This document shows, in pieces, positions 6,172 to 60,192 of a stretch of 64,000 nt of DNA. How positions within the stretch are numbered: position 1 is the first letter of the stretch; the number at the start of each line of letters is the position of its first letter. The stretch comes from a virus: positions 1 through 64,000 of the IMG/VR virus record IMGVR_UViG_3300020469_000023. The stretch is one strand, 5' to 3'. Both the position numbers and the translations under genes were made by a program. The notes under the pieces are model-generated. The model made no database searches, was not told the origin of the DNA, and was given only the letters and a program-made list of their open reading frames with translations.

Positions 6172-6823
6172 CTGAGACTTCGTAGTTTTCGTTGTAGTTA
6201 TGTTTTGCAAGACAACCATTTACATTTTGAATAGTTGTAAAGTTATCTCTTGCTTCTACTGGCCATGGATAATATTCTTGAAGAAACTTAAATCTATCTA
6301 GATGTAAAAACGTGTCAGTTGGTCCAGCATCTATCTTTGCTTGGTCAATTAGTATTTTTGCACCTGCTGGTTTAATGCCATATGCATGTGCGCCAGGAAA
6401 ATATCTTTTACTTGTCAATGGATTTAGTCCTAATATTCCTGGTGTATTAAAGTTGCCATAACTAGGTTTACCAAAACTACAGACAAAAGTATAAGGCACA
6501 TTTGGTATAGGTGCAGTTAATACTGCATCGTGTTCAAAGATAAGTATCTCTTCATTTAACTCTACACATTTTTTCCATAAAGAATAATGTGAACAAAATG
6601 CAGATATACAATTTAAATTACGAGAGTATTGTTCTTCAAAACCTGCTTCGGGTATGCCTTCTTGTTCTAAAAACGTTAGTGGTTCGTCTCTCGGTGTGAT
6701 TGCTTCGAATCTTTTTATGTCTAAGTCATACTTATAACCAGATTCCATGCATCTCCAAGAAGTCTCTAGACTACCTTGATGGTGCATTATAGTAATAACA
6801 AATGCTTTCATATTATATCTCAT
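6164..6823 (-). CDS. GT25-like glycosyltransferase
   Basis: About 219 residues. MKAFVITI at the start, then a central LIFEHDAVL carrying the EHD motif of family GT25 (LPS-type glycosyltransferases). Later FPGAHAYGIKPAGAKILID matches the family's G-x-x-AY element. Met5 at 6811 is an alternative start preceded by GAGAT. The ATG at 6823 overlaps the preceding stop (ATGA). It is paralogous in plan to the next gene and to 17694-18374. Confidence 0.75.
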   Translation of the reverse strand: MRYNMKAFVITIMHHQGSLETSWRCMESGYKYDLDIKRFEAITPRDEPLTFLEQEGIPEAGFEEQYSRNLNCISAFCSHYSLWKKCVELNEEILIFEHDAVLTAPIPNVPYTFVCSFGKPSYGNFNTPGILGLNPLTSKRYFPGAHAYGIKPAGAKILIDQAKIDAGPTDTFLHLDRFKFLQEYYPWPVEARDNFTTIQNVNGCLAKHNYNENYEVSDV

Positions 6824-7548
6824 TGAGTTGTAGTACTCTTAAGTCCTTGTTGTATAGTAGTGTAGTAAGGATAAACGACTTGTAAAGATGGAAACAATTG
6901 CTTACACATCAATGCATCATTTGGCCACATACCAACTTCTTTTGTTTTAAGTAATAATTCTTCTGCAGTTTTTGGTGTCATAATATATGCAGAATTGCCT
7001 GCAAGTCCTTGAGGATAATCTTTTGATTCATCAACATAAGGTACATCTTGCACACCTTGTTGTTTTGATATCAAGTCGTGATACACTTGAGATTTACGAG
7101 TCATACCTCTAGGGTCATTTAGACCAACAACTTCACCTTTCCATTTATGACTTTTATTAATGTCTTCTTCAATAAACTGTCGAGTAAAAAGTGCATCGTG
7201 TTCTAGTATAATAATCTTATCTCCTGAGTTAATACACTCTTGCCATAATCTCATATGCGATATCATACATGCAATTCTATTCTTTATATCACCAGTCTCA
7301 TATGCACGAAGTCTGAGTCCAGTTGCTATGTCATACTTCTCACCGACTTGTGGATAACTATATTGTAAGAATTCTGCATCTATAGTCGTTATCTTTCTTA
7401 AATCTTCTTTAACAGTATCTGGTGTAGTCGCAGGAAAGATTAATGGGTCTATTTCAGACTTAGTTTCTTTGATAGAACCAATTACTTGTCTACTTGCTAA
7501 TGTAGATTCATGATTGTTTATCATTGTTATAATATAACCCTTTATCAT
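6820..7548 (-). CDS. GT25-like glycosyltransferase
   Basis: About 242 residues starting at MIKGYIITMI. The IIILEHDALF motif and LAGNSAYIMTPKTAEELL follow the GT25 order. The start at 7548 gives an ATGA overlap with the methyltransferase stop; the longer frame to 7581 lacks support. Three GT25-like genes in this island suggest sequential addition of different sugars, or alternative substrates. Confidence 0.75.
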   Translation of the reverse strand: MIKGYIITMINNHESTLASRQVIGSIKETKSEIDPLIFPATTPDTVKEDLRKITTIDAEFLQYSYPQVGEKYDIATGLRLRAYETGDIKNRIACMISHMRLWQECINSGDKIIILEHDALFTRQFIEEDINKSHKWKGEVVGLNDPRGMTRKSQVYHDLISKQQGVQDVPYVDESKDYPQGLAGNSAYIMTPKTAEELLLKTKEVGMWPNDALMCKQLFPSLQVVYPYYTTIQQGLKSTTTQ

Positions 7549-8072
7549 TGCTTTTGTCCTACAAATATGTGGTCTCTCCATTTACCTGACCTCTGGTCAC
7601 CTGAATGAAAAAGGTCTATATAATCATTTATAATTTTAATATCGTATTTGCTTTCTTCTGTTATACCTTCAAATGCATCGTCCATAAATCTAAAGTAATC
7701 TTTTTTATCATGTCTGGGGCCTGCACTTGGGACTATGATAACAATAATACCATTGGGTTTTAACACACGACATAGTTCTTCAAATATTTTAAATGGGTTT
7801 GCAATATGTTCTAATGTTTGTCCTGAGACCACAATGTCAAATGCTTCATCAATTGCGGGTATAGTATATTTTTCTTTCATAAAATGTGTCACACTCGGTG
7901 CATCTACAATATCTGCAATCCAGTAATGTTTAGTCCAATCTTTCCAAAGTAATTCATAACTTCTTTCAAGTTTACCACCACCCCCTAAATCTAAGATTTC
8001 ATTTTCTTTTTCTAAATATGGTGTAAGTTCTTGTATGACCTTTTCCATATTGTCTAGTGAACTTTGATGCAT
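7545..8072 (-). CDS. Class I SAM-dependent methyltransferase
   Basis: 175 residues. The SAM-binding loop ILDLGGGGK (about 26-34) is followed by DEAFDIVVSGQTLEHIANP (motifs II/III, Methyltransf_11 type) and a VLKPNGIIVIIVPSAGP strand-turn. The substrate is unknown. Its place among glycosyltransferases suggests methylation of a sugar or of an attached small molecule, which would be capsule- or O-antigen-like remodelling. Overlaps the next gene by four bases. Confidence 0.85.
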   Translation of the reverse strand: MHQSSLDNMEKVIQELTPYLEKENEILDLGGGGKLERSYELLWKDWTKHYWIADIVDAPSVTHFMKEKYTIPAIDEAFDIVVSGQTLEHIANPFKIFEELCRVLKPNGIIVIIVPSAGPRHDKKDYFRFMDDAFEGITEESKYDIKIINDYIDLFHSGDQRSGKWRDHIFVGQKQ

Positions 8073-8639
8073 TTAGTTTACTACTCCCGCAATACAATAT
8101 CTATAACCTTTTAACTGCACTGGTTTTGTTTCATGCATAACATGACCTCTAAACAAAAGTAGTCTACCATGTTTTATAGGTATTTCTACTTCTGCATCGG
8201 TAATCCATAATCCTTGTGCATTTTCTGGTGGGTCGATATAATAGGTAAATGCCCATCTTGCAGGCCAATGATTATGTGGTATAGTAATTTCTTCTTTTTC
8301 ATATCTGGTGCCCCATATTGCCACGACTCTAGAATTTTTAATAAATGTATTATAATTAGACATTTGACTTCTTCTATAATGATTAGGAGATTGATACATA
8401 TTTTCTTTTTCTGCACACTCAATTGCAAACTTAGAAATTATTTCACATAATGTTTTAATTTCAGGATATTCTAGTTCTTTACCAAGAAATGTTCCAGTGG
8501 TTAATGCTTTAACATTAGATAAAAAATGATTTTCATCTCCAGTTGAATCTATACGTGCAACTAATCTTGTATTCATATCTTCATTATCAATGTCTAAAGT
8601 ATAGATACGTTCTGTTAGTTTGGTTTCAACTGTATGCAT
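8073..8639 (-). CDS. 2OG-Fe(II) oxygenase-like protein
   Basis: 188 residues. The C-terminal half shows the double-stranded beta-helix pattern: IPHNHWPARWAFTYYIDPP, then GRLLLFRGHVMHETKPV and GYRYCIAGVV. The first and last metal-binding His are plausible (H of HNH, H of MHE) and the trailing Arg could bind 2-oxoglutarate. No HxD is exact, so the metal set is uncertain. Its neighbour 8615-9319 looks like a second member of the superfamily. Confidence 0.6.
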   Translation of the reverse strand: MHTVETKLTERIYTLDIDNEDMNTRLVARIDSTGDENHFLSNVKALTTGTFLGKELEYPEIKTLCEIISKFAIECAEKENMYQSPNHYRRSQMSNYNTFIKNSRVVAIWGTRYEKEEITIPHNHWPARWAFTYYIDPPENAQGLWITDAEVEIPIKHGRLLLFRGHVMHETKPVQLKGYRYCIAGVVN

Positions 8640-9319
8640 TTATCTCTACTACTTTTTTTAATTTTATTCCAAGTATTTGCAGTTGCAGTACCTGTAATTT
8701 GTAATGCAGGTCTTTTTTTCCATGAACCATTCCATGTTGCATGTGGTAAAGTTGACCACTCCCAAGTGACAACTTCTCCTGCTTTCCATTGTGTATGTAT
8801 ATGATTACCAAATTGAAATATCTGCCCTGGTTCCCAATCTGCAAGAAAGACTAGAAATCTTACTTTGTCTTTAGCATATTGAAATTCTTTACTTTCGATT
8901 CGTTCTTTTCTTGGTTCACCTGGTAGATTGTCTATATGAAACATTAACTGTTGATTTGGTTTTTGGTCATGAAACTTCCATGTTTGATTTTTAGTTTTGT
9001 CTAATTCAAACCACTCTGCAATTCTTCTAAAGTTAATAAATCTATTATCATCATTATATCTGTATGCATCAAACATTTCTGCATCAGGTTGACCAGCATA
9101 ATTATCTGCATCTTCAATTGCATGATAAACATCATTTACTACAGATGCTTTATTGTTTGCATAATTATATGGTTGTTCATTAAATAATTTTGTTTTCATT
9201 TGTGTTGTTCTTGCAATTGTAATCTCTTGAGTAAAGTCAATATCGAATCGACCAACTATTTTAAAGTAGTCTCCTTCTTTATCTTTCTTCCATTTGTCAA
9301 AATGATAATCTTCAAACAT
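8615..9319 (-). CDS. 2OG-Fe(II) oxygenase / cupin-like protein
   Basis: 234 residues. The second half has an HxD (MFHIDNLPG) and, further on, GQIFQFGNHIHTQWKAGEV and TLPHATWNGSWKKRPALQITG. This is the order expected for a double-stranded beta-helix oxygenase (H-x-D ... H ... R). The N-terminal half is unassigned. It overlaps the next gene by 25 bases. Hydroxylation of a surface glycan or peptide is inferred from context only. Confidence 0.6.
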   Translation of the reverse strand: MFEDYHFDKWKKDKEGDYFKIVGRFDIDFTQEITIARTTQMKTKLFNEQPYNYANNKASVVNDVYHAIEDADNYAGQPDAEMFDAYRYNDDNRFINFRRIAEWFELDKTKNQTWKFHDQKPNQQLMFHIDNLPGEPRKERIESKEFQYAKDKVRFLVFLADWEPGQIFQFGNHIHTQWKAGEVVTWEWSTLPHATWNGSWKKRPALQITGTATANTWNKIKKSSRDKCIQLKPN

Positions 9320-9918
9320 TACACTCTTATAATAAACTGAGTTTTACCTCGTCTTTCTTTAAATAACATGTTTGTTTTTATGAAAGTATCAACTGCATCG
9401 GTGACACCTCTTTTACCATACTTTGCTTTTGGCCAGTAATAATCATCACCCATAATCATACCACCAGGTTTGACAACTTTCAAAGAGTTTTCTAAATCTT
9501 TTAAACAACCTTCATAACCATGGTCACCGTCTACATATATCCAATCTAATTTTTCTGGTTTAGAATCAAACCATTCATCTGAGGTCATACGATGAATTCT
9601 CACTCTTGGGTCCATTCCACACGTTGCACGTACTTCTGAATAGATTGCATCGTAATATTCTTGAAAATCTACATCTTTCTTTTTTATGTTAAGTATGTTA
9701 GAATATTTTGTTAAATACTCGTCATAACTTTTATACTCTTTAGATTTTTTATAGGGTTCTACTGACCATGGGTCAATCATATGTAGTTCAGAAATATTTA
9801 ATCGTAAGAATTGCAATGAGGTGTTTCCTACCCAAATACCTATTTCAGCGCCTTTTGAATTAGGTGGTATATCTTTCAATATACTTTTAGAATCTTTATT
9901 TACTCTAGATGCCATCAT
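9319..9918 (-). CDS. Class I SAM-dependent methyltransferase (Methyltransf_24-like)
   Basis: 199 residues. The SAM loop GAEIGIWVGNTS, an acidic residue at the end of strand 2 (LHMIDPW), LDWIYVDGDHGYEGCLKDL and VVKPGGMIMGDDY match the CalS/TylF-like or cephalosporin-hydroxylase-like Methyltransf_24 group. These often O-methylate sugars. Context in a glycosyltransferase island agrees. Confidence 0.85.
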   Translation of the reverse strand: MMASRVNKDSKSILKDIPPNSKGAEIGIWVGNTSLQFLRLNISELHMIDPWSVEPYKKSKEYKSYDEYLTKYSNILNIKKKDVDFQEYYDAIYSEVRATCGMDPRVRIHRMTSDEWFDSKPEKLDWIYVDGDHGYEGCLKDLENSLKVVKPGGMIMGDDYYWPKAKYGKRGVTDAVDTFIKTNMLFKERRGKTQFIIRV

Positions 9919-10264
9919 GAGACTTTTTCTCCGTTATTTCACTACCGCATACATTATCTATGAGTCTCTTAACTCTTGCTCTTTCATCGTTTAGTAGATA
10001 AACAAGTCTCGACAATTCTTGAAATTTAATATCAAAGTTTTGTTCTTTTTCGTAAGTTCTTTTTTCGTCTTCAATAGTCCACAATAGGCCATTGATGTGT
10101 TTTAGTAAACTAAAAAGTCTATATGTTATTTCATTTCCATATCCTACAAAAGTTGGATTTAGTTTATCTAATTCAGTTTCTACGTCTAAACCTTTTTCTT
10201 TTTTTATTGCTAGTATTGATACTTTATCGAACAATTCACCAACACTTACTTGTATTTCAGGCAT
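9905..10264 (-). CDS. DUF6165-like protein
   Basis: 119 residues. The start VSVGELFDKVSILAIKKEKG, a DKLNP segment and a helical C-terminus match the DUF6165 family found beside glycosyltransferases in bacteria and phages. Function unknown, probably an accessory protein of glycan synthesis. It overlaps both neighbours by a few bases. Confidence 0.7.
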   Translation of the reverse strand: MPEIQVSVGELFDKVSILAIKKEKGLDVETELDKLNPTFVGYGNEITYRLFSLLKHINGLLWTIEDEKRTYEKEQNFDIKFQELSRLVYLLNDERARVKRLIDNVCGSEITEKKSHDGI

Positions 10265-11033
10265 TATATATTTTTACTCCTCTCGCTTTTGCACGAACAA
10301 AGTGGTGAGAAATATATCCACCAGTTGTGTATAAATGTATGTCTTCTGGTTTGTGATATAGATTTGCCATATGTAAAAATCCACTATCGATACCAATGTG
10401 TCCATCTGCTTTTCCCATAGCATAACCTATCGTTTGTATACTATCATTCATATCTGGTATGCTGGCATTACCTCCAACAGTAACTATTTCATATCCTTGC
10501 TCTTTATATCTATTCTCAATCACGTTAATTTCTGCTTCTGGTATACTTCTACCGGGGTCGGTAGTGTCCCATTGAGCAGTTACAAATTTACTAGGAACAA
10601 ATACTGCATGTTCTTTTTTTACTTGAAGCAAAGGATAATCTTTAAGTAATAATTCTGAAATGTCTAGTGGTAAAGGTATCGATGTTGGTGGGTCATTTGG
10701 GTGCATTTCTACAGTATCTTTATAGTAATAAGTTTCTGCATCATAACCACTTTCTTTTAAATATGCTAACCATTCATTTTCTGGTAAGTCTTGAACATCA
10801 TGGTTTTTATATGTGACAGTATCAGGAAACAAACTAATGATTTCTGGCCATGATTGTTGCTTTCTTGGTTTATCATTTTTATCAGCAGTAAGATGTATTG
10901 TTACTTTGTCATCGTGTAATAAACTATAAAGATGTCCTAACAACACACTATGTATTCTATCACCAAGTCCTGGTGTAGTAAATGGTCTGTCACCATTTCG
11001 CATACTTTTAGACCTCAATGCTAAGTGTTTCAT
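10257..11033 (-). CDS. GT9-like (heptosyltransferase-like) glycosyltransferase
   Basis: 258 residues of GT-B plan. GLGDRIHSVLLGHLYSL at residues 22-38 is the acceptor-side loop. Near the end GKADGHIGIDSGFLHMANLY matches the nucleotide-sugar binding D-S-G-x-x-H/H-x-A element of GT9. The protein is shorter than full heptosyltransferases (about 320-350), so parts of the N-domain are reduced. Likely involved in a surface glycan; the substrate is unknown. Confidence 0.7.
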   Translation of the reverse strand: MKHLALRSKSMRNGDRPFTTPGLGDRIHSVLLGHLYSLLHDDKVTIHLTADKNDKPRKQQSWPEIISLFPDTVTYKNHDVQDLPENEWLAYLKESGYDAETYYYKDTVEMHPNDPPTSIPLPLDISELLLKDYPLLQVKKEHAVFVPSKFVTAQWDTTDPGRSIPEAEINVIENRYKEQGYEIVTVGGNASIPDMNDSIQTIGYAMGKADGHIGIDSGFLHMANLYHKPEDIHLYTTGGYISHHFVRAKARGVKIYNA

Positions 11034-11461
11034 AACGAATCAATGTATGCTTGTAAATTCTCCATGTCTTGAGTTGATAAGTTTGCGGCCTGTCCCCACA
11101 TTAAAGCGGATTGAGGACCTCGTGTCTCACCATTTTTATATTGTTGTAGCATTGAAACTATTGAAGTACTACCTGCTAATTTAGGGCCGATACCACCTTC
11201 TCCTGCTTGACCATGACACATTGCACAATTAACATAAGTCTTTGCACCTTTATCTGCTGGACTTTCTCCTTGCATTGCAACTCGTTTTGCTTCCATCTGC
11301 TCTGCAAACGTTCCATATTTCTTAGTATACTCTACATAACATTCTCCGAAACAACTGTGTATACGTGAATAGTCTTTAACATCTGCTGTTTGATATGCAC
11401 CATAAAGTAATCCTGAAATTCCTGTGACTGCAATTAGTATTGGTAAAAGTACTTCTTTCAT
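11030..11461 (-). CDS. Membrane-anchored class I cytochrome c
   Basis: 143 residues. A hydrophobic N-terminal segment (about 4-22) acts as membrane anchor or uncleaved signal. The heme-attachment site is CAMCH (79-83), followed by GIGPKLAG (the conserved Pro loop) and a candidate axial Met in ALMWGQAANLS (Met121). An extra Cys pair (CFGEC, 37-41) lies before the heme domain. Expected to carry electrons in the periplasm. It is the third gene after an internal sigma70 promoter that also covers the alternative oxidase, so the two are probably co-expressed early. Confidence 0.88.
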   Translation of the reverse strand: MKEVLLPILIAVTGISGLLYGAYQTADVKDYSRIHSCFGECYVEYTKKYGTFAEQMEAKRVAMQGESPADKGAKTYVNCAMCHGQAGEGGIGPKLAGSTSIVSMLQQYKNGETRGPQSALMWGQAANLSTQDMENLQAYIDSL

Positions 11462-53360: not shown

Positions 53361-53368
53361 TATAAATA
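53361..53368 (+). promoter_or_regulatory. T4-type late promoter of the curli-like operon
   Basis: Exact TATAAATA on the plus strand, seven bases before the ATG at 53376. No sigma70-like promoter is visible on this strand, so the operon 53376-60192 is predicted to be late. The intergenic region 53262-53375 holds only these two divergent promoters. Confidence 0.7.
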
Positions 53369-53375
53369 GACGTGT

Positions 53376-53672
53376 ATGAACAATATAATGAAATTATTAA
53401 TGGAAGTGGGTATCCCGATTGGTAGTGCAATCATCATGGGGTTCTTTATCTTTCTGACTTTAAAATACATTTTAGATAGTGTTGGTGGTTCTGTTACAGG
53501 TCTTACTAACATTATGAATGGTTTAGAGTCAAGAGTTCGTCAAATGAATAATGATATGATAAAGATTGACTTGTTAGTAAGTGAGTCTTTAGATTTAAGA
53601 CCAGACATCGATAGAGTTGCGAGAGCAGAAAACTTTATGGAAGATGGTAAGATAGACTCTAGGAGAGATTAA
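53376..53672 (+). CDS. Small membrane/coiled-coil protein A of the curli-like operon
   Basis: 98 residues. The N-terminal membrane helix (EVGIPIGSAIIMGFFIFLTLKYI, about residues 10-33) is followed by a short coiled coil (RQMNNDMIKIDLLVSE) and a charged tail. It is paralogous in plan to the next gene (EVG-x-P, MG-[FY]-F-I, then [MN]-x-ND-[LM]-I). Holin- or scaffold-like proteins have this form. As first genes of the operon they may anchor the system in the inner membrane. Confidence 0.65.
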   Translation: MNNIMKLLMEVGIPIGSAIIMGFFIFLTLKYILDSVGGSVTGLTNIMNGLESRVRQMNNDMIKIDLLVSESLDLRPDIDRVARAENFMEDGKIDSRRD

Positions 53673-54001
53673 TGAACAGCAGTAATATTAATCAAATTGT
53701 TTTGATTATTGATGAGGTTGGTTATCCAGTTTTAATGGCAATCGGTATGGGATATTTTATCTGGTATGTTTGGAAGTATGTGACGAAAGAACTAAAACCA
53801 AAAATTGGTGCTTCACATAAGACTCTTATTAAATTATTAGACCAGATTAGAATGCTTGACAATGACTTGATACGATTACAACAGAAAGTAAATACTGTAA
53901 TCGAATATAGAAAACAAGAAGAATTAAAAAAACAAGGGCAAGAAGATGAAGACAGCACAGTATATATTAATGATATGGGTAAGTCTAACGATAACAAGTA
54001 A
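53672..54001 (+). CDS. Small membrane/coiled-coil protein B of the curli-like operon
   Basis: 109 residues. A membrane helix (EVGYPVLMAIGMGYFIWYVWKYV) begins near residue 15. A coiled coil (KLLDQIRMLDNDLIRLQQK) and an acidic/Lys tail follow. Its start overlaps the stop of its paralogue by one base and its end overlaps csgF by 56 bases. The duplicate with matching layout suggests a hetero-oligomer. Confidence 0.65.
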   Translation: MNSSNINQIVLIIDEVGYPVLMAIGMGYFIWYVWKYVTKELKPKIGASHKTLIKLLDQIRMLDNDLIRLQQKVNTVIEYRKQEELKKQGQEDEDSTVYINDMGKSNDNK

Positions 54002-54428
54002 TTTGTTTGCTGACCAGATAGTTCATAAATTTAAATCTCCATCATTTAGTGGTATTGGACAATCGTCACACTATTTAACAATAGAGAATCAACAGAAGTC
54101 TCGTAGAGATAAGATTCAAGAAGATATCGAATCTGCAATTGCAAAAGCAGAACGTGAAGCAGATAGTACGACCCATGCTAAGTTCCTTAGAAACTTAGAG
54201 TCAAGAATCTATGCTCAAATATCAAAACAATTAGTTGACCAAATGTTTGGTGATGGAGTAAATGAAGGTTCAATAGAAGGTTTCTTTGATATGCTTGGTA
54301 ATACTGTAGCATACGAATTATGTACAGGTTGTGGTGATGATGGTATTGATGTAATTAGAATTACAATTACAGGCGATGATAATACAACAACAACATTAGA
54401 TGTACCAGTAGGTAGTGGAGCATTTTAG
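53946..54428 (+). CDS. csgF: CsgF-like curli assembly factor
   Basis: 160 residues. Signal peptide (MKTAQYILMIWVSLTITSNLFA, cleavage near 22). The mature start IVHKFKSPSFSGIGQSSHYL matches the CsgF N-terminus (F-x-x-P-x-F-G-G), the part that inserts into the CsgG pore. A helical middle and beta-strand end (VIRITITGDDNTTTTLDV) also follow CsgF. An insertion with two Cys (ELCTGCGDDG) is unlike E. coli CsgF. It is directly followed by csgG (TAGTG overlap), so the pore and its extracellular cap are coupled. Confidence 0.82.
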   Translation: MKTAQYILMIWVSLTITSNLFADQIVHKFKSPSFSGIGQSSHYLTIENQQKSRRDKIQEDIESAIAKAEREADSTTHAKFLRNLESRIYAQISKQLVDQMFGDGVNEGSIEGFFDMLGNTVAYELCTGCGDDGIDVIRITITGDDNTTTTLDVPVGSGAF

Positions 54429-55300
54429 TGAAAATATTTTTATTGATAGGAGTATTCGTTCTATCAAGTTGTGCTAGTATTCCTTCTTTCTCACGTATAG
54501 ATTGTGATGAAAGAGAATTAGCATGTCGAGAAAGTGCAACTATAGAAAAGTTGCCATCGACAGCAGAATTAAAAAAAGTGCCAGGTCCAAGTAATGGTAA
54601 ACCTGTAGTAGTTGCAGTTTATGGATTTACAGACAAAACTGGCCAAAGAAAAAGTAGAGATACATTTTCAGATTTTTCTACTGCAGTAACACAAGGTGCA
54701 GATTTACTTGTTATTGATGCACTTAAAACTGCAAGTAATGGAGAGTGGTTTAGAGTAGTTGAGAGAACTAATATAGATGCTCTCATAAGAGAAAGGCAAA
54801 TAATAAGAAGTTCTAGAGAAGAGTTTAAAGAAGATAAACAACTAGCATCTTTAGTATTTGCAGGGATTTTAATTGATGGTGGTGTTGTTGGGTACGACAC
54901 TAACATCGAAAGTGGTGGTCGTGGAGCAAGATACTTAGGTATCGGACACAATACATCATATAGAAGAGATTCAGTAATTGTTAGTCTAAGGGCAACCTCA
55001 ACACTAACAGGTGAAATTTTAATGAATGTTCAGGCGAAAAAAACTATTTTGTCTGTCGGTGGCGGTTATGATTTATTCCGATTCTTTGATATGGATACAA
55101 AGTTATTGGAATTTGAAGATGGTAACGGATTTAACGAAAGTGTAACGTTTGCAGTTCGCTCCGCTATTGAAGTTGCCGTATTAGAACTTATTTACCAAGG
55201 ACACGATAGAGGTTTTTGGAAAATGAAAAGTGACCATCGTCACCCACACTTAAGTGATGGGACTAACGATAAACACTTAATAACTAAGGAGAAAGAATGA
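54428..55300 (+). CDS. csgG: CsgG-like outer-membrane secretion lipoprotein
   Basis: 290 residues with a GTG start overlapping the csgF stop. Lipobox LSSC (Cys15) gives an outer-membrane lipoprotein. KPVVVAVYGFTDKTGQRKS and WFRVVERTNIDALIRERQII are CsgG signatures. Then LIDGGVVGYDTNIESGGRGARYLG spans the first transmembrane hairpin and VSLRATSTLTGEILMNVQ the second. Family role: nonameric diffusion pore that exports curli subunits across the outer membrane. A His-rich C-terminal extension is present. Confidence 0.93.
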   Translation: MKIFLLIGVFVLSSCASIPSFSRIDCDERELACRESATIEKLPSTAELKKVPGPSNGKPVVVAVYGFTDKTGQRKSRDTFSDFSTAVTQGADLLVIDALKTASNGEWFRVVERTNIDALIRERQIIRSSREEFKEDKQLASLVFAGILIDGGVVGYDTNIESGGRGARYLGIGHNTSYRRDSVIVSLRATSTLTGEILMNVQAKKTILSVGGGYDLFRFFDMDTKLLEFEDGNGFNESVTFAVRSAIEVAVLELIYQGHDRGFWKMKSDHRHPHLSDGTNDKHLITKEKE

Positions 55301-56214
55301 GAACTTTAATTCTCGCTTTATTATTAACAGCAAGTGCTTTTGCATTTGCGGATAATGAAATATATATCGAGCAAGTTGGTGAAGGTGTAGAAATTATTAT
55401 TGAACAAACAGGTAATGGAAACTTGATTGGGCAAAATACTAGCACTGGTGCTAATGCGACCGACATGAAACTGCAGATAGGTAACTCTAATGCATATTGG
55501 TTGTTTAATGGAAGTAACAACTTACTATTTGGTGATATCAACTCAGATGGTTCAAACATTGACTATAATGTTCAAGGTTCGAACAACAGAATCAATCAAT
55601 TGATTGGTACTGTAACTGGTAATACTAGTAGTAATCAAAGTGCAGATGCCATTGATATGAATGTAGATGTTCAAGGTGATTATAACCAGACAACGTTTAG
55701 GTTAGGTAATAAATCTGAAACTTACAATACACCTCATAATTTAGGTGATGGTGCATTTTTTAACAATAGTGCAGGTTTTAAAACGTATAGCAATCATACA
55801 TTTACAGGTAGTAACATCACGGGTTATGGAACTTATGGTGGTAATGCTACAAGTAACTATGGGTCAAATGCCGCATATTGGGATGCCTGGAATATTACAG
55901 AAGGTAGTGCTGATGGTGCCAACATTGACTTATTAGTTGATGGCAGTGGTGCTTCAAATACTATTGGTGCATTTATAAACTCTTCAAATGCTGTTTGGGA
56001 TTGGGACATAACTGGTTCAAATAACTGGATATTAACAACTCAAGAAGATGGAAGTGATAATAAAATATCTGTTGATTTAACAGGTGATAAAAACTATGTA
56101 TTTGTTGGTCAAAGAACAGGTACAAGTATAAGTGGTGCAGAGGCGATATTAGATGCAAGTTTTGTTACAGACGGTTCAGAAATTACGATTATTCAACAAG
56201 ATACTGGCGAGTAA
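55297..56214 (+). CDS. Curlin-repeat secreted protein 1 (CsgA/CsgB-like)
   Basis: 305 residues, about twice CsgA. Signal peptide ends AFAFA/DN at residue 18. The mature start NEIYIEQVGEGVEIIIEQTG has the Q-x-G spacing of curlin repeats. Further Asn/Gly/Ser-rich strands repeat with motifs like GSNNRINQLIG, GDYNQTTFRLGN and GDKNYVFVGQ, and the end is VTDGSEITIIQQD. Likely a beta-solenoid or amyloid substrate of CsgG/CsgF. It is non-canonical: repeats are irregular and long loops contain Trp and Tyr. AAGGAGAAAG precedes the ATG. Confidence 0.8.
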   Translation: MRTLILALLLTASAFAFADNEIYIEQVGEGVEIIIEQTGNGNLIGQNTSTGANATDMKLQIGNSNAYWLFNGSNNLLFGDINSDGSNIDYNVQGSNNRINQLIGTVTGNTSSNQSADAIDMNVDVQGDYNQTTFRLGNKSETYNTPHNLGDGAFFNNSAGFKTYSNHTFTGSNITGYGTYGGNATSNYGSNAAYWDAWNITEGSADGANIDLLVDGSGASNTIGAFINSSNAVWDWDITGSNNWILTTQEDGSDNKISVDLTGDKNYVFVGQRTGTSISGAEAILDASFVTDGSEITIIQQDTGE

Positions 56215-57304
56215 TCTTATTCTAATAGGGTCTGTTTATGCAGACTCTATTGGCGATATTCGTGAGCATACTGGTAGTGCGGCAATCGAAAGAGAATCTG
56301 GTGAAGAACTAGTTGTCTCTCCTGCTTTTTTACCTGATGTTGAAATGAATGATACTGCTATTACTGGTAATGGCAGAATGTTAATTGAATTCAAAGATAA
56401 AGAAGAATTAGCATTGACTGAACACACAAAGATTTATATTGATGAAGTATATTATGACCCTGACCCATCGCTGTCAAAGATGACTATGCGAATGGCACTT
56501 GGTACTGCTAGATTTACATCTGGTAGAGGTGAAATGATTGACAAAGCAAACATTGACATTTCAACACCAACTGCTCAGATAGGTATTCGGGGAACAGATT
56601 TTACAACTACAGTTGATGAACTCGGTAGAACGTTAGTTGTATTATTACCTGATGAAAATGGAGAATCATCTGGTGAAATATTTATTACAAATGCTGGTGG
56701 GACAATTACATTGAATGAAGCATATCAATCTATGATGCTTCAATCATTTGATGTAATGCCACAAAGAACAGTTATTCTTGAAGGCATTACGCCCGATTCA
56801 ATTAATAATATGTTTATTGTTAATCCACCAAAAGAGATAAAAGAAGTAGAAGCAGAAGGAGAAAGTAAAGAAGACGATGCTCAAGGTATTTTAGATGTAG
56901 ACTTCTTGGCATACGATGCCTTAGAAGAAGATGCTTTAGAAGATAAAGGAGAATTAGAATATACAGAACTAGATATTGACTTATTAGATGTTGAGTTTCT
57001 TCAAGACGTATTAGACATTACTGCTGACCTCGATAGAATAAATGAGATTGATAGAGAGGTTGCAGATATAGGTAATGTTAACATTGAAGGTACTCAAGTA
57101 GGGTTTGATGATGATAGTCAATATAGTACGTTTGTTAATAAAGAAGAAGAGACGATTGTTATGACTAGAGAAGTAGAAGGTGTAATTAGAATAACTCATG
57201 CGATTTATACAAATGCAGTTATTGAAACATACACTAACCAAAAACCAAGCGAGATAACTTTAGGAGATGGTTCAGATGCAAGAATCATAATAATACAAGA
57301 ATGA
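56153..57304 (+). CDS. FecR-domain periplasmic protein
   Basis: 383 residues. Signal sequence to about residue 30 (GSVYA/DS). The FecR domain is at about 34-185: ALTEHTKIYIDEV, MRMALGTARFTSGRG, and TAQIGIRGTDFTTTVDELG, the last a hallmark block. A long acidic segment (225-330, Glu/Asp-rich) and a beta-rich end follow. In bacteria FecR domains relay outer-membrane signals; stand-alone secreted FecR proteins often neighbour CHASE2 cyclases, from memory. The gene overlaps curlin 1 by 62 bases, a tight coupling. Confidence 0.88.
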   Translation: MQVLLQTVQKLRLFNKILASNLILIGSVYADSIGDIREHTGSAAIERESGEELVVSPAFLPDVEMNDTAITGNGRMLIEFKDKEELALTEHTKIYIDEVYYDPDPSLSKMTMRMALGTARFTSGRGEMIDKANIDISTPTAQIGIRGTDFTTTVDELGRTLVVLLPDENGESSGEIFITNAGGTITLNEAYQSMMLQSFDVMPQRTVILEGITPDSINNMFIVNPPKEIKEVEAEGESKEDDAQGILDVDFLAYDALEEDALEDKGELEYTELDIDLLDVEFLQDVLDITADLDRINEIDREVADIGNVNIEGTQVGFDDDSQYSTFVNKEEETIVMTREVEGVIRITHAIYTNAVIETYTNQKPSEITLGDGSDARIIIIQE

Positions 57305-58131
57305 TTAAATTTTTAAAAGAAAATACATCACCACAAGGTATAAAGACTATCGTAACAATGTGGATTTTATTTGCATTTGCTATTGGTGGTTGTGAATATG
57401 TATATGCTGATAATGAAGTATATATTACTCAAAGTGGTGAAGGTACAAAGTTGTTTATCGAACAAGAAGGTAAAGATAATAAAGTAGACTTCTCAATGCA
57501 ACATCAGGGTAATGAAGTAAAAATAATCCAGCATGGGCATAATAATAAAATAGCATATGGACATTGGGGTTCACTAACTAGTGGAGATATAGATGGAACG
57601 TTTAATTCATTAGACTTTGCACAAATATGTGGACGTGGTTCAAGTTGTAAAGAATCTGATATCGGTCTGCATATCTATGGAGACAATAACTCAATACGTT
57701 GGGGACAAGGATATATTTTAAGTTCTCCGACTTCAACTTGGACATGGGACGGAAGTGAAGGTGGTGGTCATCATCTAACTTTAGATGTTCATGGAGATAA
57801 TAATAATGTTGCGGGTAGTCAAAGAAACTCATCTGCAGGCATCTATAGTGAACACCAAGCAGATATCTATCTTTACTCTAATAACAATAGTGTTTTTTGG
57901 AGACAAAATACAGATGGTGTTAAAGATGTAAATTTATACACATATAATGATGGTAATAATATTACTGGTTATCAATCTGGTTATGCAACACATACTGCAA
58001 ATATATCTTTAACTGGGTCTAGTCCAACAACATTAAATTTAACTCAAGAAGGTAACTCTGCTCAATCATATTCACTATCACAAAACTGCCAAACTATGGG
58101 TGGTTGTAGCATTTCTGTTACACAACAATAA
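57301..58131 (+). CDS. Curlin-repeat secreted protein 2
   Basis: 276 residues. A longer signal segment (hydrophobic 18-35) ends YVYA/DNEVYI, so the mature start NEVYITQSGEGTKLFIEQEG is nearly the same as that of curlin 1. Repeats such as GNEVKIIQHGHNNKIAYG, GDNNSIRWGQG and GDNNNVAGSQRN show the curlin-type N-x-x-x-x-Q spacing. Two Cys pairs are present (ICGRGSSC, NCQTMGGC). An IGGC before the cleavage site could alternatively be a lipobox. ATGA overlap with the FecR gene. The two proteins may be a major/minor subunit pair like CsgA/CsgB. Confidence 0.78.
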   Translation: MIKFLKENTSPQGIKTIVTMWILFAFAIGGCEYVYADNEVYITQSGEGTKLFIEQEGKDNKVDFSMQHQGNEVKIIQHGHNNKIAYGHWGSLTSGDIDGTFNSLDFAQICGRGSSCKESDIGLHIYGDNNSIRWGQGYILSSPTSTWTWDGSEGGGHHLTLDVHGDNNNVAGSQRNSSAGIYSEHQADIYLYSNNNSVFWRQNTDGVKDVNLYTYNDGNNITGYQSGYATHTANISLTGSSPTTLNLTQEGNSAQSYSLSQNCQTMGGCSISVTQQ

Positions 58132-58136
58132 AGACA

Positions 58137-59966
58137 ATGTATAATTGGAAAGTTGTTCTCGTAACAATAGCATTACTTGTAAGTGTTCGTATTGCTGACC
58201 CTAAATTAGTAGAGCAGTTTCGTTTAAACTATTTTGATTCACTTCAATATTTACAAGAACCCGTAGACTCTGGTATTGTTTTAGTTGATATTGATGAAAA
58301 GTCTTTAGAGCAATTTGGACAGTTTCCATTTCCACGTGATATCTATGCACAAGAATTAAGTAAGAATGGTGCATTGTCTTTGTATGTAATGAATATGAGT
58401 TTTACAGAAGCAGATAGATTTGGTGGTGATGAAGACTTAGCAAACGTGATGAATCTTCGTGAAGTTATATTATCTTCTATTCCTACAAACGTAACAAATA
58501 AAGGCGACAAACCATTTCTTGGTTTTGGCAAACTAGGTAAAGGTAACCCAAGTAATTGGTTATATAACTACAAAGGTATTTCTACACCAATAAAAGAATT
58601 AAATCCTGTTGGAGTTGGTGTTGTAAGTGCGGCACCAAGTGTTGATGGTATAGTTCGTGAAGCACCCTTAATGGTAATTGCAAACGAACATATCTATCCT
58701 TCTCTTGCATTAGAAACTTTACGTGTTTGGAATCGTCAACCTAATTATGCAATGAAAGTAAAAGAAGCAGGTGTTGAATGGGTAAGAATGGGTAAACTAG
58801 ATAAAATGTCCACTACACCTAACTCTAATATTCAGATTGCATATTGGAATAATTTTAAACGTATTTCTTTTGGTGAACCAATGCCAGATGGGCAAATGTA
58901 TATTATAGGACTATCTGCTGGTGGATTGGTAAACCCAGTACCAACACCCATGGGTGCAATGTACCCACATGATGTTCAAGCAAACTTAATTCAAACTGTC
59001 GTGAGCGGTGTACAAATACAAAGACATTTCTTTCTTGAACAGTTAGAAATACTTGTTCTGATAATAAGTACACTATTAATACTACTTATGGTATATAGAT
59101 TGCCTACGTATTTAAGTGGTATACTATCTCTTGCAATGATTGGTGGTATAGTTGCAACAGGACTATATTATTGGTATACTGCTCTGTTACTTATTGATGT
59201 AGTTTACACGTCACTGGCATTATTCCTAGTGTTTGGACATGCATCATTTAACAAGTACTACGTCACATACAAACTTAAGGAAATGATTAAAGGACAGTTT
59301 AAAACATATCTATCGCCAGATATGGTAGATAAACTTGCAGAAGACCCAAGTCTTTTAAAACTTGGTGGTGAAAGAAGAAACATGACTTTCTTTTTTATGG
59401 ATATTGTAGGGTTTACACCAATATCAGAACACTATAAAAACAATAATGACCCCGAAGGTCTAGTGGAATTAATTAATAACTTTTTAGATAGAACATCAAA
59501 TATTATACTAAATAATGGTGGTACTATTGATAAATACATGGGTGATTGTATAATGGCGTTTTGGAATGCTCCATTAGACAACAAGTATCATGCAGAACTT
59601 GCCTGTATATCTGCAATTCAAATAGAAAAAGAAGTAGGAGAAATTCAAGATGAATTTAAAAGAAAAAATCTACCTAGCATTAATGTTGGTATTGGTATTA
59701 ATACCAGTGATTGCATATGCGGTAATCTTGGTAGTCAATCCAGATTTGATTATTCAGTCATCGGAGATGGCGTCAATCTCGCCGCACGTCTGGAAGCATT
59801 AGCGGGTAGAGGCGATTATAAAAAACATATGACTATAGTTGGACAAGATACTGTTGATTCAATAGTTGTAAATGGATATAGTCAGAAAGATGTTATGTTT
59901 AATTACATTGATGAGATACAAGTAAAAGGTAAAGAAGAAAAAATAAAAATATATTCACCGAGTTAG
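58137..59966 (+). CDS. CHASE2 sensor - class III adenylate cyclase
   Basis: 609 residues. N-terminal membrane helix (4-20), extracytoplasmic CHASE2 domain (about 35-295; VLVDIDEKSLEQFGQFPFPRD and PLMVIANEHIYPSLALE), three membrane helices (about 302-367), then the cyclase (about 410-605). Metal Asp422 (FMDIVGFT) and Asp470 (KYMGDCIMAF), the adenine-selecting Lys466, and the transition-state Asn547 and Arg551 (GDGVNLAARLE) are all present, so it should be active and make cAMP. The periplasmic sensor faces the compartment of FecR and the curli subunits. It ends the regulatory part of the operon. Confidence 0.93.
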   Translation: MYNWKVVLVTIALLVSVRIADPKLVEQFRLNYFDSLQYLQEPVDSGIVLVDIDEKSLEQFGQFPFPRDIYAQELSKNGALSLYVMNMSFTEADRFGGDEDLANVMNLREVILSSIPTNVTNKGDKPFLGFGKLGKGNPSNWLYNYKGISTPIKELNPVGVGVVSAAPSVDGIVREAPLMVIANEHIYPSLALETLRVWNRQPNYAMKVKEAGVEWVRMGKLDKMSTTPNSNIQIAYWNNFKRISFGEPMPDGQMYIIGLSAGGLVNPVPTPMGAMYPHDVQANLIQTVVSGVQIQRHFFLEQLEILVLIISTLLILLMVYRLPTYLSGILSLAMIGGIVATGLYYWYTALLLIDVVYTSLALFLVFGHASFNKYYVTYKLKEMIKGQFKTYLSPDMVDKLAEDPSLLKLGGERRNMTFFFMDIVGFTPISEHYKNNNDPEGLVELINNFLDRTSNIILNNGGTIDKYMGDCIMAFWNAPLDNKYHAELACISAIQIEKEVGEIQDEFKRKNLPSINVGIGINTSDCICGNLGSQSRFDYSVIGDGVNLAARLEALAGRGDYKKHMTIVGQDTVDSIVVNGYSQKDVMFNYIDEIQVKGKEEKIKIYSPS

Positions 59967-59970
59967 CGTT

Positions 59971-60192
59971 ATGAAAAAAGTAGAGAGGTCTTTTTCAAGT
60001 GCAGTAAGAATGCCTTATCAAGATGCAATTGCATTTGCACTAAGACTTCATGACTTTCATATCGCACAATCTATTCAAGACTCAAAAAATAAAGAGTTTC
60101 ATAAAAAACAAGCACAAAGAATGCGAGATTGGTTAACTGATATGAAAGATTTTATTATTTCGAATGAGTCTTCTCATGAACATGAAGCATAA
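59971..60192 (+). CDS. Small basic protein at the end of the curli-like operon
   Basis: 73 residues, helical (SSAVRMPYQDAIAFALRLHDF and KKQAQRMRDWLTDMKDF), soluble, His-rich C-terminus. It lies four bases after the cyclase and converges with the DUF3310 gene, overlapping it by 38 bases. Function unknown. It could belong with the cyclase, but resemblance to a general phage protein cannot be excluded. Confidence 0.6.
   Translation: MKKVERSFSSAVRMPYQDAIAFALRLHDFHIAQSIQDSKNKEFHKKQAQRMRDWLTDMKDFIISNESSHEHEA

What the first reader, a model, noticed from the sequence alone, without database searches (positions are those of the whole stretch)
58137..59966. Phage-encoded transmembrane second-messenger cyclase with all catalytic residues
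Seen: both metal Asp (422, 470), purine-selecting Lys466, Asn547 and Arg551, plus a full CHASE2 domain and four membrane helices. A phage making its own sensor cyclase is unusual. It could raise cAMP in the host or, being late, act on the host population after partial lysis.
Basis: partly seen in the sequence, partly recalled or inferred. Interest (0 to 1): 0.8.

Follow-up and report, generated by a model that had tools for sequence, protein, structure and literature searches.

The report
Phage curli operon's CHASE2 adenylate cyclase
A marine T4-like phage carries an intact membrane-bound cyclic-AMP-making sensor as the last gene of an already published curli (amyloid fibre) secretion operon; gene neighbours, evolution and a late-phage promoter suggest it reports on fibre secretion late in infection, although neither the phages nor their likely SAR11 hosts have a recognisable cAMP receptor.

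Summary
Window 58137-59966(+) encodes a 609-aa CHASE2 + class III cyclase with four hydrophobic segments and all five named catalytic residues (D422, K466, D470, N547, R551); its model matches P. aeruginosa CyaB (Z 26, 1.8 Å). It is not an isolated oddity: it closes an eight-gene curli/T8SS cassette (53376-59966) already reported, cyclase included, in pelagiphages (PMC9599517) and annotated in cultured HTVC008M and Melnitz.

What I add: (1) catalytic residues are kept in about 90 viral homologues; (2) a T4-type late promoter (TATAAATA, 53361) heads the cassette here and in 31/49 viral loci; (3) bacterial relatives lie beside FecR-domain proteins and type I secretion genes, sometimes with cNMP-binding effectors, never beside curli genes; (4) in close relatives lacking only the cyclase, the FecR domain has diverged most (47%), so FecR tracks the cyclase rather than the fibre; (5) neither the phages nor 58/60 SAR11-family genomes have a cNMP-binding domain.

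Best explanation: FecR relays the curli-export state to CHASE2, which sets cyclase output late in infection. Product, ligand and receptor are unproven. A new member of a published phage module, with a sharper, testable mechanism.

The parts
53361..53368 (+). T4-type late promoter TATAAATA, 7 nt before the first cassette ORF
   Evidence: one of only 3 plus-strand copies in 64 kb; exact motif within 100 nt upstream of the cassette in 31/49 distinct viral loci, about 0.36 expected; phage encodes late sigma gp55 and clamp gp45
53376..53672 (+). small membrane/coiled-coil protein (phrog_18771)
   Evidence: PHROGs E 5e-25; hydrophobic segment; no kinase domain
53672..54001 (+). second small membrane/coiled-coil protein (phrog_18771)
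   Evidence: PHROGs E 8e-27; no kinase domain
53946..54428 (+). CsgF
   Evidence: Pfam PF10614 E 9e-9
54428..55300 (+). CsgG outer-membrane curli pore
   Evidence: Pfam PF03783 E 8e-46
55297..56214 (+). curlin-like subunit (first)
   Evidence: profile match to second subunit, probability 99.7%; PF07012 only sub-threshold, E 0.08
56153..57304 (+). FecR-domain periplasmic protein with curlin-like C-terminal strand motif
   Evidence: Pfam PF04773 E 1.5e-8; PupR signalling-domain fold; C-terminal motif in 72/72 viral homologues vs 2/1612 control ORFs
57301..58131 (+). curlin-like subunit (second)
   Evidence: NCBIfam CsgB E 3e-5, below its curated cut-off; PF07012 sub-threshold
58137..59966 (+). 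CHASE2-class III adenylate cyclase (the finding)
59971..60192 (+). 73-aa ORF, absent together with the cyclase in AC-less relatives; unknown

Best explanation
A curli-coupled membrane adenylate cyclase of HTVC008M-like marine T4-type phages. The cassette is transcribed late as one operon; CsgG/CsgF form the outer-membrane export pore for two curlin-like subunits. The FecR-domain protein sits in the periplasm and transmits the state of the outer-membrane export/fibre machinery to the periplasmic CHASE2 domain, which through three further membrane helices sets the output of a dimeric cytoplasmic class III cyclase, most likely making cAMP. Shown: domains, catalytic residues, late promoter motif, conserved gene order, selection, FecR-AC co-variation. 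Inferred: FecR-CHASE2 contact, cAMP as product, direction of signalling. Unknown: the receptor, since neither phage nor typical SAR11 has a recognisable one.
For: Gene order sm-sm-CsgF-CsgG-curlin-FecR-curlin-AC complete in 56 of 100 viral loci, nearly all the rest being subsets of it. Of 35 CsgG-seeded viral loci with enough downstream DNA, 35 have FecR and two curlins, 33 have AC, and AC never occurs without FecR. Late promoter, gp55. Bacterial AC relatives: FecR within the fetched flanks in 37/80 loci, in about two dozen as the next gene upstream on the same strand; HlyD in 26/80; no CsgG/CsgF/curlin in any. In L034 the order is T1SS ABC, HlyD fused to a cNMP-binding domain, CHASE2-AC, two cNMP-binding proteins, with a convergent FecR-RTX protein and its own T1SS genes nearby. 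FecR model matches the cell-surface-signalling domain of anti-sigma regulator PupR (6ovk, E 6.6e-5). In AC-less relatives the FecR domain is 47% identical to the window's while other cassette genes are 64-87%; in AC-bearing loci it is 57-92% even where curlins are 26-40%. CHASE2-FecR gene pairing is independently reported with AC in Campylobacterota (PMC9239204) and with a histidine kinase in a Burkholderia biofilm operon (PMC5192318). Catalytic residues conserved, dN/dS about 0.1.
Against: No physical evidence that FecR binds CHASE2. The AC-less comparison rests on one clade, so one evolutionary event. No receptor: PF00027 in 0/9 phage records and 2/60 SAR11-family genomes. The FecR C-terminal domain shows no significant profile similarity to curlins (hhalign probability 3.6%), so docking to the fibre is only a motif-level suggestion. 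The cassette persists without AC in one clade, so AC is not essential for it. Melnitz lost N547 (Ser) and one contig has D422Y.
Confidence: 0.55

Rival explanations
1. The cyclase acts outward on host physiology: it raises cAMP to reprogramme the host, and its link to curli is only co-transfer of a hitchhiking gene.
For: Intact catalytic residues; PMC9599517 suggests cAMP-linked regulation by analogy with gammaproteobacterial curli control; OM43 hosts of Melnitz were not tested for receptors.
Against: cNMP-binding domain in only 2/60 and class III cyclase in only 2/60 SAR11-family genomes, and both of those cyclases lie in phage-type cassettes on small contigs; constant position next to FecR across divergent phages; FecR domain tracks AC presence.
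Confidence: 0.2
2. The cassette is a lysis/pore device (CsgG pore as pinholin-like element, as proposed for Melnitz) and the cyclase senses envelope damage to time lysis.
For: Late promoter; CsgG pore; Melnitz authors' proposal (PMC9004378).
Against: Two curlin-like subunits are present in all 35 loci that could be judged, and both Melnitz subunits carry PF07012 repeats above cut-off, so it is not merely a pore; HTVC008M encodes endolysins elsewhere.
Confidence: 0.12
3. The cyclase makes another product (cGMP or a pyrimidine cNMP) or is a nucleotide sink or decoy with no receptor.
For: No receptor found; second purine-contact position is Ser540, and Cya2, a guanylyl cyclase, is also a close structural neighbour.
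Against: Lys466 is invariant (93/93) and is the residue found in the adenylyl cyclase CyaB; bacterial relatives have the same Ser/Thr and some sit beside cNMP-binding proteins.
Confidence: 0.1
4. A non-functional remnant, an ordinary passenger of gene transfer.
For: One clade lacks it without loss of the rest; the window copy departs at three otherwise conserved cyclase positions, G524S, V528C, M531L.
Against: dN/dS about 0.1 and catalytic residues kept across about 90 viral homologues; cyclase present in 33/35 cassettes.
Confidence: 0.03

Closest known systems
Pelagiphage T8SS gene cluster with FecR and adenylate cyclase (PMC9599517; HTVC008M I899_gp014-gp019; Melnitz _99-_104)
   Same: Same genes in the same order, including the cyclase as last gene; this is the same module.
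   Different: That paper reads FecR as an iron/ferric-citrate regulator and the leading small genes as histidine kinases; here FecR looks like the cyclase's partner and the small proteins (98 and 109 aa) have no detectable kinase domain. A late promoter and AC-less natural variants are added.
Bacterial FecR-CHASE2-cyclase gene pairs (Bradyrhizobium, Thalassospira, marine Alphaproteobacteria here; Campylobacterota in PMC9239204)
   Same: CHASE2 + class III cyclase with a FecR-domain protein nearby, often as the next gene upstream.
   Different: Bacterial FecR proteins are often giant RTX- or cadherin-like exported proteins and type I secretion genes recur nearby, some with cNMP-binding effectors; phages have curli (T8SS) instead and no recognisable effector.
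Burkholderia BiofilmReg operon (FecR/LysM protein + CHASE2 histidine kinase, PMC5192318)
   Same: FecR-domain periplasmic protein encoded next to a CHASE2 sensor, linked to biofilm formation.
   Different: Output is a two-component kinase, not a cyclase.
CyaB of Pseudomonas aeruginosa (3r5g)
   Same: Cyclase domain fold and all five catalytic residues (Z 26, 35% identity).
   Different: Only the catalytic domain was compared; the fold search barely tested the phage protein's periplasmic CHASE2 part.

Membership tests
Class III nucleotide cyclase (adenylate cyclase type) | catalytic-domain fold | tested here: met
   PF00211 E 5e-17; CyaB Z 26, 1.8 A over 185 residues
Class III nucleotide cyclase (adenylate cyclase type) | two metal Asp, Asn/Arg transition-state pair | tested here: met
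   D422, D470, N547, R551 aligned with CyaB
Class III nucleotide cyclase (adenylate cyclase type) | Lys plus Asp/Thr adenine-selecting pair | tested here: inconclusive
   Lys466 present; partner position is Ser540, as in 72/81 bacterial relatives with Thr in the other 9
Class III nucleotide cyclase (adenylate cyclase type) | makes cAMP from ATP | not testable with these tools
   needs an enzyme assay
CHASE2 sensor family | periplasmic CHASE2 domain between TM1 and three further TM helices | tested here: met
   PF05226 E 3e-29; helices and hydropathy
Phage T8SS/curli cassette (PMC9599517) | CsgF, CsgG, curlin-like subunits, FecR and AC in conserved order | tested here: met
Phage T8SS/curli cassette (PMC9599517) | leading genes annotated as histidine kinases | tested here: not met
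   98 and 109 aa, no kinase domain in Pfam or NCBIfam; the homologous genes lead the cassette, so this questions the published annotation, not membership
Curli (T8SS) substrate CsgA/B | Curlin_rpt (PF07012) above curated cut-off | tested here: inconclusive
   window subunits sub-threshold (E 0.04-0.08), Melnitz homologues above cut-off
Phage T8SS/curli cassette (PMC9599517) | produces extracellular amyloid during infection | not testable with these tools
   needs infection and amyloid staining or microscopy

The most novel reading that the evidence does not exclude
FecR-CHASE2-cyclase is a general periplasmic sensor of fibre/adhesin export, used by bacteria with giant RTX-like proteins (T1SS) and re-plugged by marine phages onto curli (T8SS), giving a late-infection second-messenger signal in a SAR11 host that otherwise has no class III cyclase and no cNMP-binding receptor, and hence an undiscovered cAMP target.
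Probability: 0.3. Interest if true: 0.75.

Novelty: new member of a known kind. Interest (0 to 1): 0.5.

Why it matters
Why phages of the ocean's commonest bacteria carry amyloid-export genes is an open question, and the published module left the cyclase and FecR as loosely connected 'regulators'. The evidence here ties the cyclase to FecR rather than to host catabolite control, gives the operon a late promoter, and supplies natural cyclase-minus variants in nearly the same genome neighbourhood, so the role of the signal can be tested. It also exposes a puzzle: a conserved, selected cyclase whose likely host lacks any recognisable cAMP receptor.

Tried and rejected
(a) cAMP receptor in the phage: PF00027 in 0/9 records including complete HTVC008M and Melnitz; other receptor types were not searched. 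(b) FecR C-terminus as a curlin homologue: hhalign probability 3.6% and 1.4%; only the terminal [ILVF]x[ILVF]xQ motif stands. (c) Foldseek of the FecR model gave PupR/anti-sigma signalling domains and no curlin among the listed matches (no evidence of absence). (d) Curli next to CHASE2-AC in bacteria: 0/80 AC loci had CsgG/CsgF/curlin, and the 3 loci with CsgF above cut-off among 289 Alphaproteobacteria had no FecR or AC in about 20 kb, so an intact bacterial donor module was not found in this small sample. (f) The SAR11 family was reached through FISH-probe sequences recalled from memory; a literature check found no paper holding the probe, but all four probe sites occur in order in the 16S genes of both genomes found. 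(g) Host assignment: core genes are closest to phage C48C1 (host unstated), then Melnitz and HTVC008M, so SAR11 is likely, not proven.

Full report
OBSERVATION. The ORF at 58137-59966(+) encodes 609 aa with a CHASE2 domain (PF05226, residues 11-315, E 3.4e-29) and a class III cyclase domain (PF00211, residues 414-605, E 5.3e-17). An AlphaFold2 model from 55 window and locus sequences has mean pLDDT 89.9; its cyclase domain matches CyaB with Z 26.0, 1.8 Å over 185 residues, 35% identity, followed by CyaC and Cya2. Four hydrophobic segments (6-24, 305-323, 328-346, 349-367) agree with one helix before and three after the periplasmic domain. The second purine-contact residue is Ser540 rather than Asp or Thr; it is Ser in 92/93 viral homologues and Ser or Thr in all 81 bacterial ORFs compared. 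Adenylate cyclase is the likely activity, but this is inference.

SURROUNDINGS. The gene is the last of eight plus-strand genes in a stretch where neighbours run on the minus strand: two small membrane proteins (phrog_18771), CsgF (PF10614), CsgG (PF03783), a curlin-like protein, a FecR-domain protein (PF04773), a second curlin-like protein and the cyclase. The genes overlap or abut (gaps -62 to +5 nt). TATAAATA, the T4-type late promoter (consensus from general knowledge of T4), lies at 53361, 7 nt before the first ORF; it is one of three plus-strand copies in 64 kb, and the exact motif lies within 100 nt upstream of the cassette in 31 of 49 distinct viral loci, where about 0.36 are expected. 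The 99-kb record is an HTVC008M-like T4-type phage (gp23 61%, gp41 56%, RegA 70% identical) and encodes the late sigma factor gp55 and the clamp gp45. So 'late' is supported; it was not measured. Core genes are nearest to phage C48C1 (host unstated), then Melnitz and HTVC008M, so a SAR11-like host is likely but not proven.

KNOWN MODULE. PMC9599517 (2022) describes this cluster, with FecR and adenylate cyclase, in podo- and myovirus pelagiphages; PMC7029224 (2020) had found CsgF/CsgG. HTVC008M gp014-gp019 and Melnitz _99-_104 have the same order, the last gene annotated as cyclase. The finding is therefore a member of a published module. Two published statements need qualification. The leading genes called histidine kinases are 98 and 109 aa here and have no kinase domain. 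Melnitz was said to lack csgA/csgB (PMC9004378), yet two of its cassette proteins carry PF07012 curlin repeats above cut-off.

CONSERVATION. Two searches brought about 100 viral loci with full or partial cyclase homologues. Gene order is complete in 56 of them, nearly all the rest being subsets in the same order, as expected of cut contigs. Starting instead from CsgG, of 35 loci with at least 6.5 kb downstream all have FecR and two curlins, 33 have the cyclase, and the cyclase never occurs without FecR. Catalytic positions are kept in 98-100% of viral sequences that cover them; exceptions are Melnitz (N547S, with S540D) and L174 (D422Y). Median dN/dS is 0.11 for CHASE2 and 0.09 for the cyclase domain. 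The sampled viral cyclases form one side of a fully supported branch against the bacterial ones.

BACTERIAL RELATIVES. The 80 best bacterial loci are mostly Alphaproteobacteria. None has CsgG, CsgF or curlins near the cyclase, but 37 have a FecR-domain ORF in the fetched flanks, in about two dozen as the adjacent upstream gene on the same strand. Many of these FecR proteins are giant and cadherin- or RTX-like. HlyD-like proteins occur in 26 of 80 loci and cNMP-binding proteins in 16; no control rate for random loci was computed. In L034 the cyclase lies between HlyD fused to a cNMP-binding domain and two small cNMP-binding proteins, after a T1SS ABC gene, with a FecR-RTX protein and further T1SS genes convergent. 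CHASE2-FecR pairing is reported with adenylate cyclase in Campylobacterota (PMC9239204) and with a histidine kinase in a Burkholderia biofilm operon (PMC5192318). Conversely, three alphaproteobacterial csgF loci had no FecR or cyclase in about 20 kb. In this sample the union of curli with FecR-CHASE2-cyclase is seen only in phage-type cassettes.

FECR TRACKS THE CYCLASE. L243, L205 and L206 are close relatives (L243 gp41 helicase and UvsX 96% identical to the window's) with the cassette in the same place but no cyclase: the second curlin gene is followed directly by the DUF3310 gene. Their other cassette genes are 64-87% identical to the window's, but the FecR domain is 47%. In the cyclase-bearing loci compared it is 57-92%, even where the curlins are only 26-40%. 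Over all loci, pairs with CsgG 60-80% and first curlin above 60% identity average 66% FecR-domain identity when both have the cyclase (minimum 54) and 49% when one lacks it (maximum 51). Loci with the L243-type FecR that could be judged all lack the cyclase. This is one clade, hence one event, and pairs are not independent; very distant cyclase-bearing pairs can also be low (minimum 33%). It nevertheless points to FecR being constrained by the cyclase. The FecR model resembles the PupR cell-surface-signalling domain, which in that system (general knowledge) relays outer-membrane receptor state to an inner-membrane regulator. All 72 viral FecR proteins end in [ILVF]x[ILVF]xQ, as do most curlins here, against 2 of 1612 control ORFs; profile comparison with curlins was not significant.

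RECEPTOR. No cNMP-binding domain was found in nine phage records, two of them complete genomes. Two of 60 SAR11-family genomes have PF00027 and two have PF00211. The latter two also have CsgG, and reading the contigs (23.2 and 14.6 kb) shows phage-type cassettes with the same order, bar an undetected second curlin, so they are likely phage DNA binned with, or infecting, the host. The family was reached through recalled SAR11 FISH-probe sequences, all four of which are present in order in both genomes.

MECHANISM. Most likely the periplasmic FecR protein reports the state of curli export or fibre attachment to CHASE2, which sets cyclase output late in infection. The pairing, co-variation, promoter motif and catalytic conservation are shown; FecR-CHASE2 contact, product and downstream effect are inferred. 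Interest 0.5: the gene is published, but its partner, timing and missing receptor make the question of what phage curli are for directly testable.

Noticed in passing
window 53376-54001: The two small genes that lead the cassette (published as histidine kinases in related phages) encode 98- and 109-aa proteins with one hydrophobic segment and no kinase domain.
   Followed up: partly
window 56153-57304; 72 viral FecR homologues: Every viral FecR protein ends in a curlin-like [ILVF]x[ILVF]xQ strand motif (2/1612 control ORFs do); profile homology to curlins is not significant.
   Followed up: partly
L205, L206, L243, L284, L285, L287-L290: Phages closely related to the window with the whole curli cassette but no cyclase, and with a strongly diverged FecR domain: natural cyclase-minus variants.
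   Followed up: yes
L034 2753-7765 (similar in L033, L041, L043, L048, L050): Marine Alphaproteobacteria place a HlyD fused to a cNMP-binding domain directly before a CHASE2 cyclase, followed by one or two small cNMP-binding proteins: looks like cAMP-gated type I secretion.
   Followed up: partly
L030 (Melnitz) 6176-6892 and 7954-8967: Two proteins with PF07012 curlin repeats above cut-off, although the Melnitz paper states the phage lacks csgA/csgB.
   Followed up: partly
L030 (Melnitz) 8986-11034; L174 10001-11836: Melnitz cyclase has N547S and S540D and departs at 17 conserved cyclase positions; L174 has D422Y. Possibly altered or inactive enzymes.
   Followed up: no
L199 6624-11917 and L201 2596-8513: Phage-type curli-FecR-cyclase cassettes on small contigs inside SAR11-family genome assemblies; perhaps phage DNA from infected cells.
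   Followed up: partly
window 58137-59966, residues 524, 528, 531: The window's cyclase departs at three otherwise conserved positions (G524S, V528C, M531L), more than any other viral homologue except Melnitz.
   Followed up: no
phage record OR851715.1 (Salmonella phage S.Kent 1-2-1, 1499 bases): An unannotated 1.5-kb phage record matching CsgG, probably host DNA deposited as phage.
   Followed up: no
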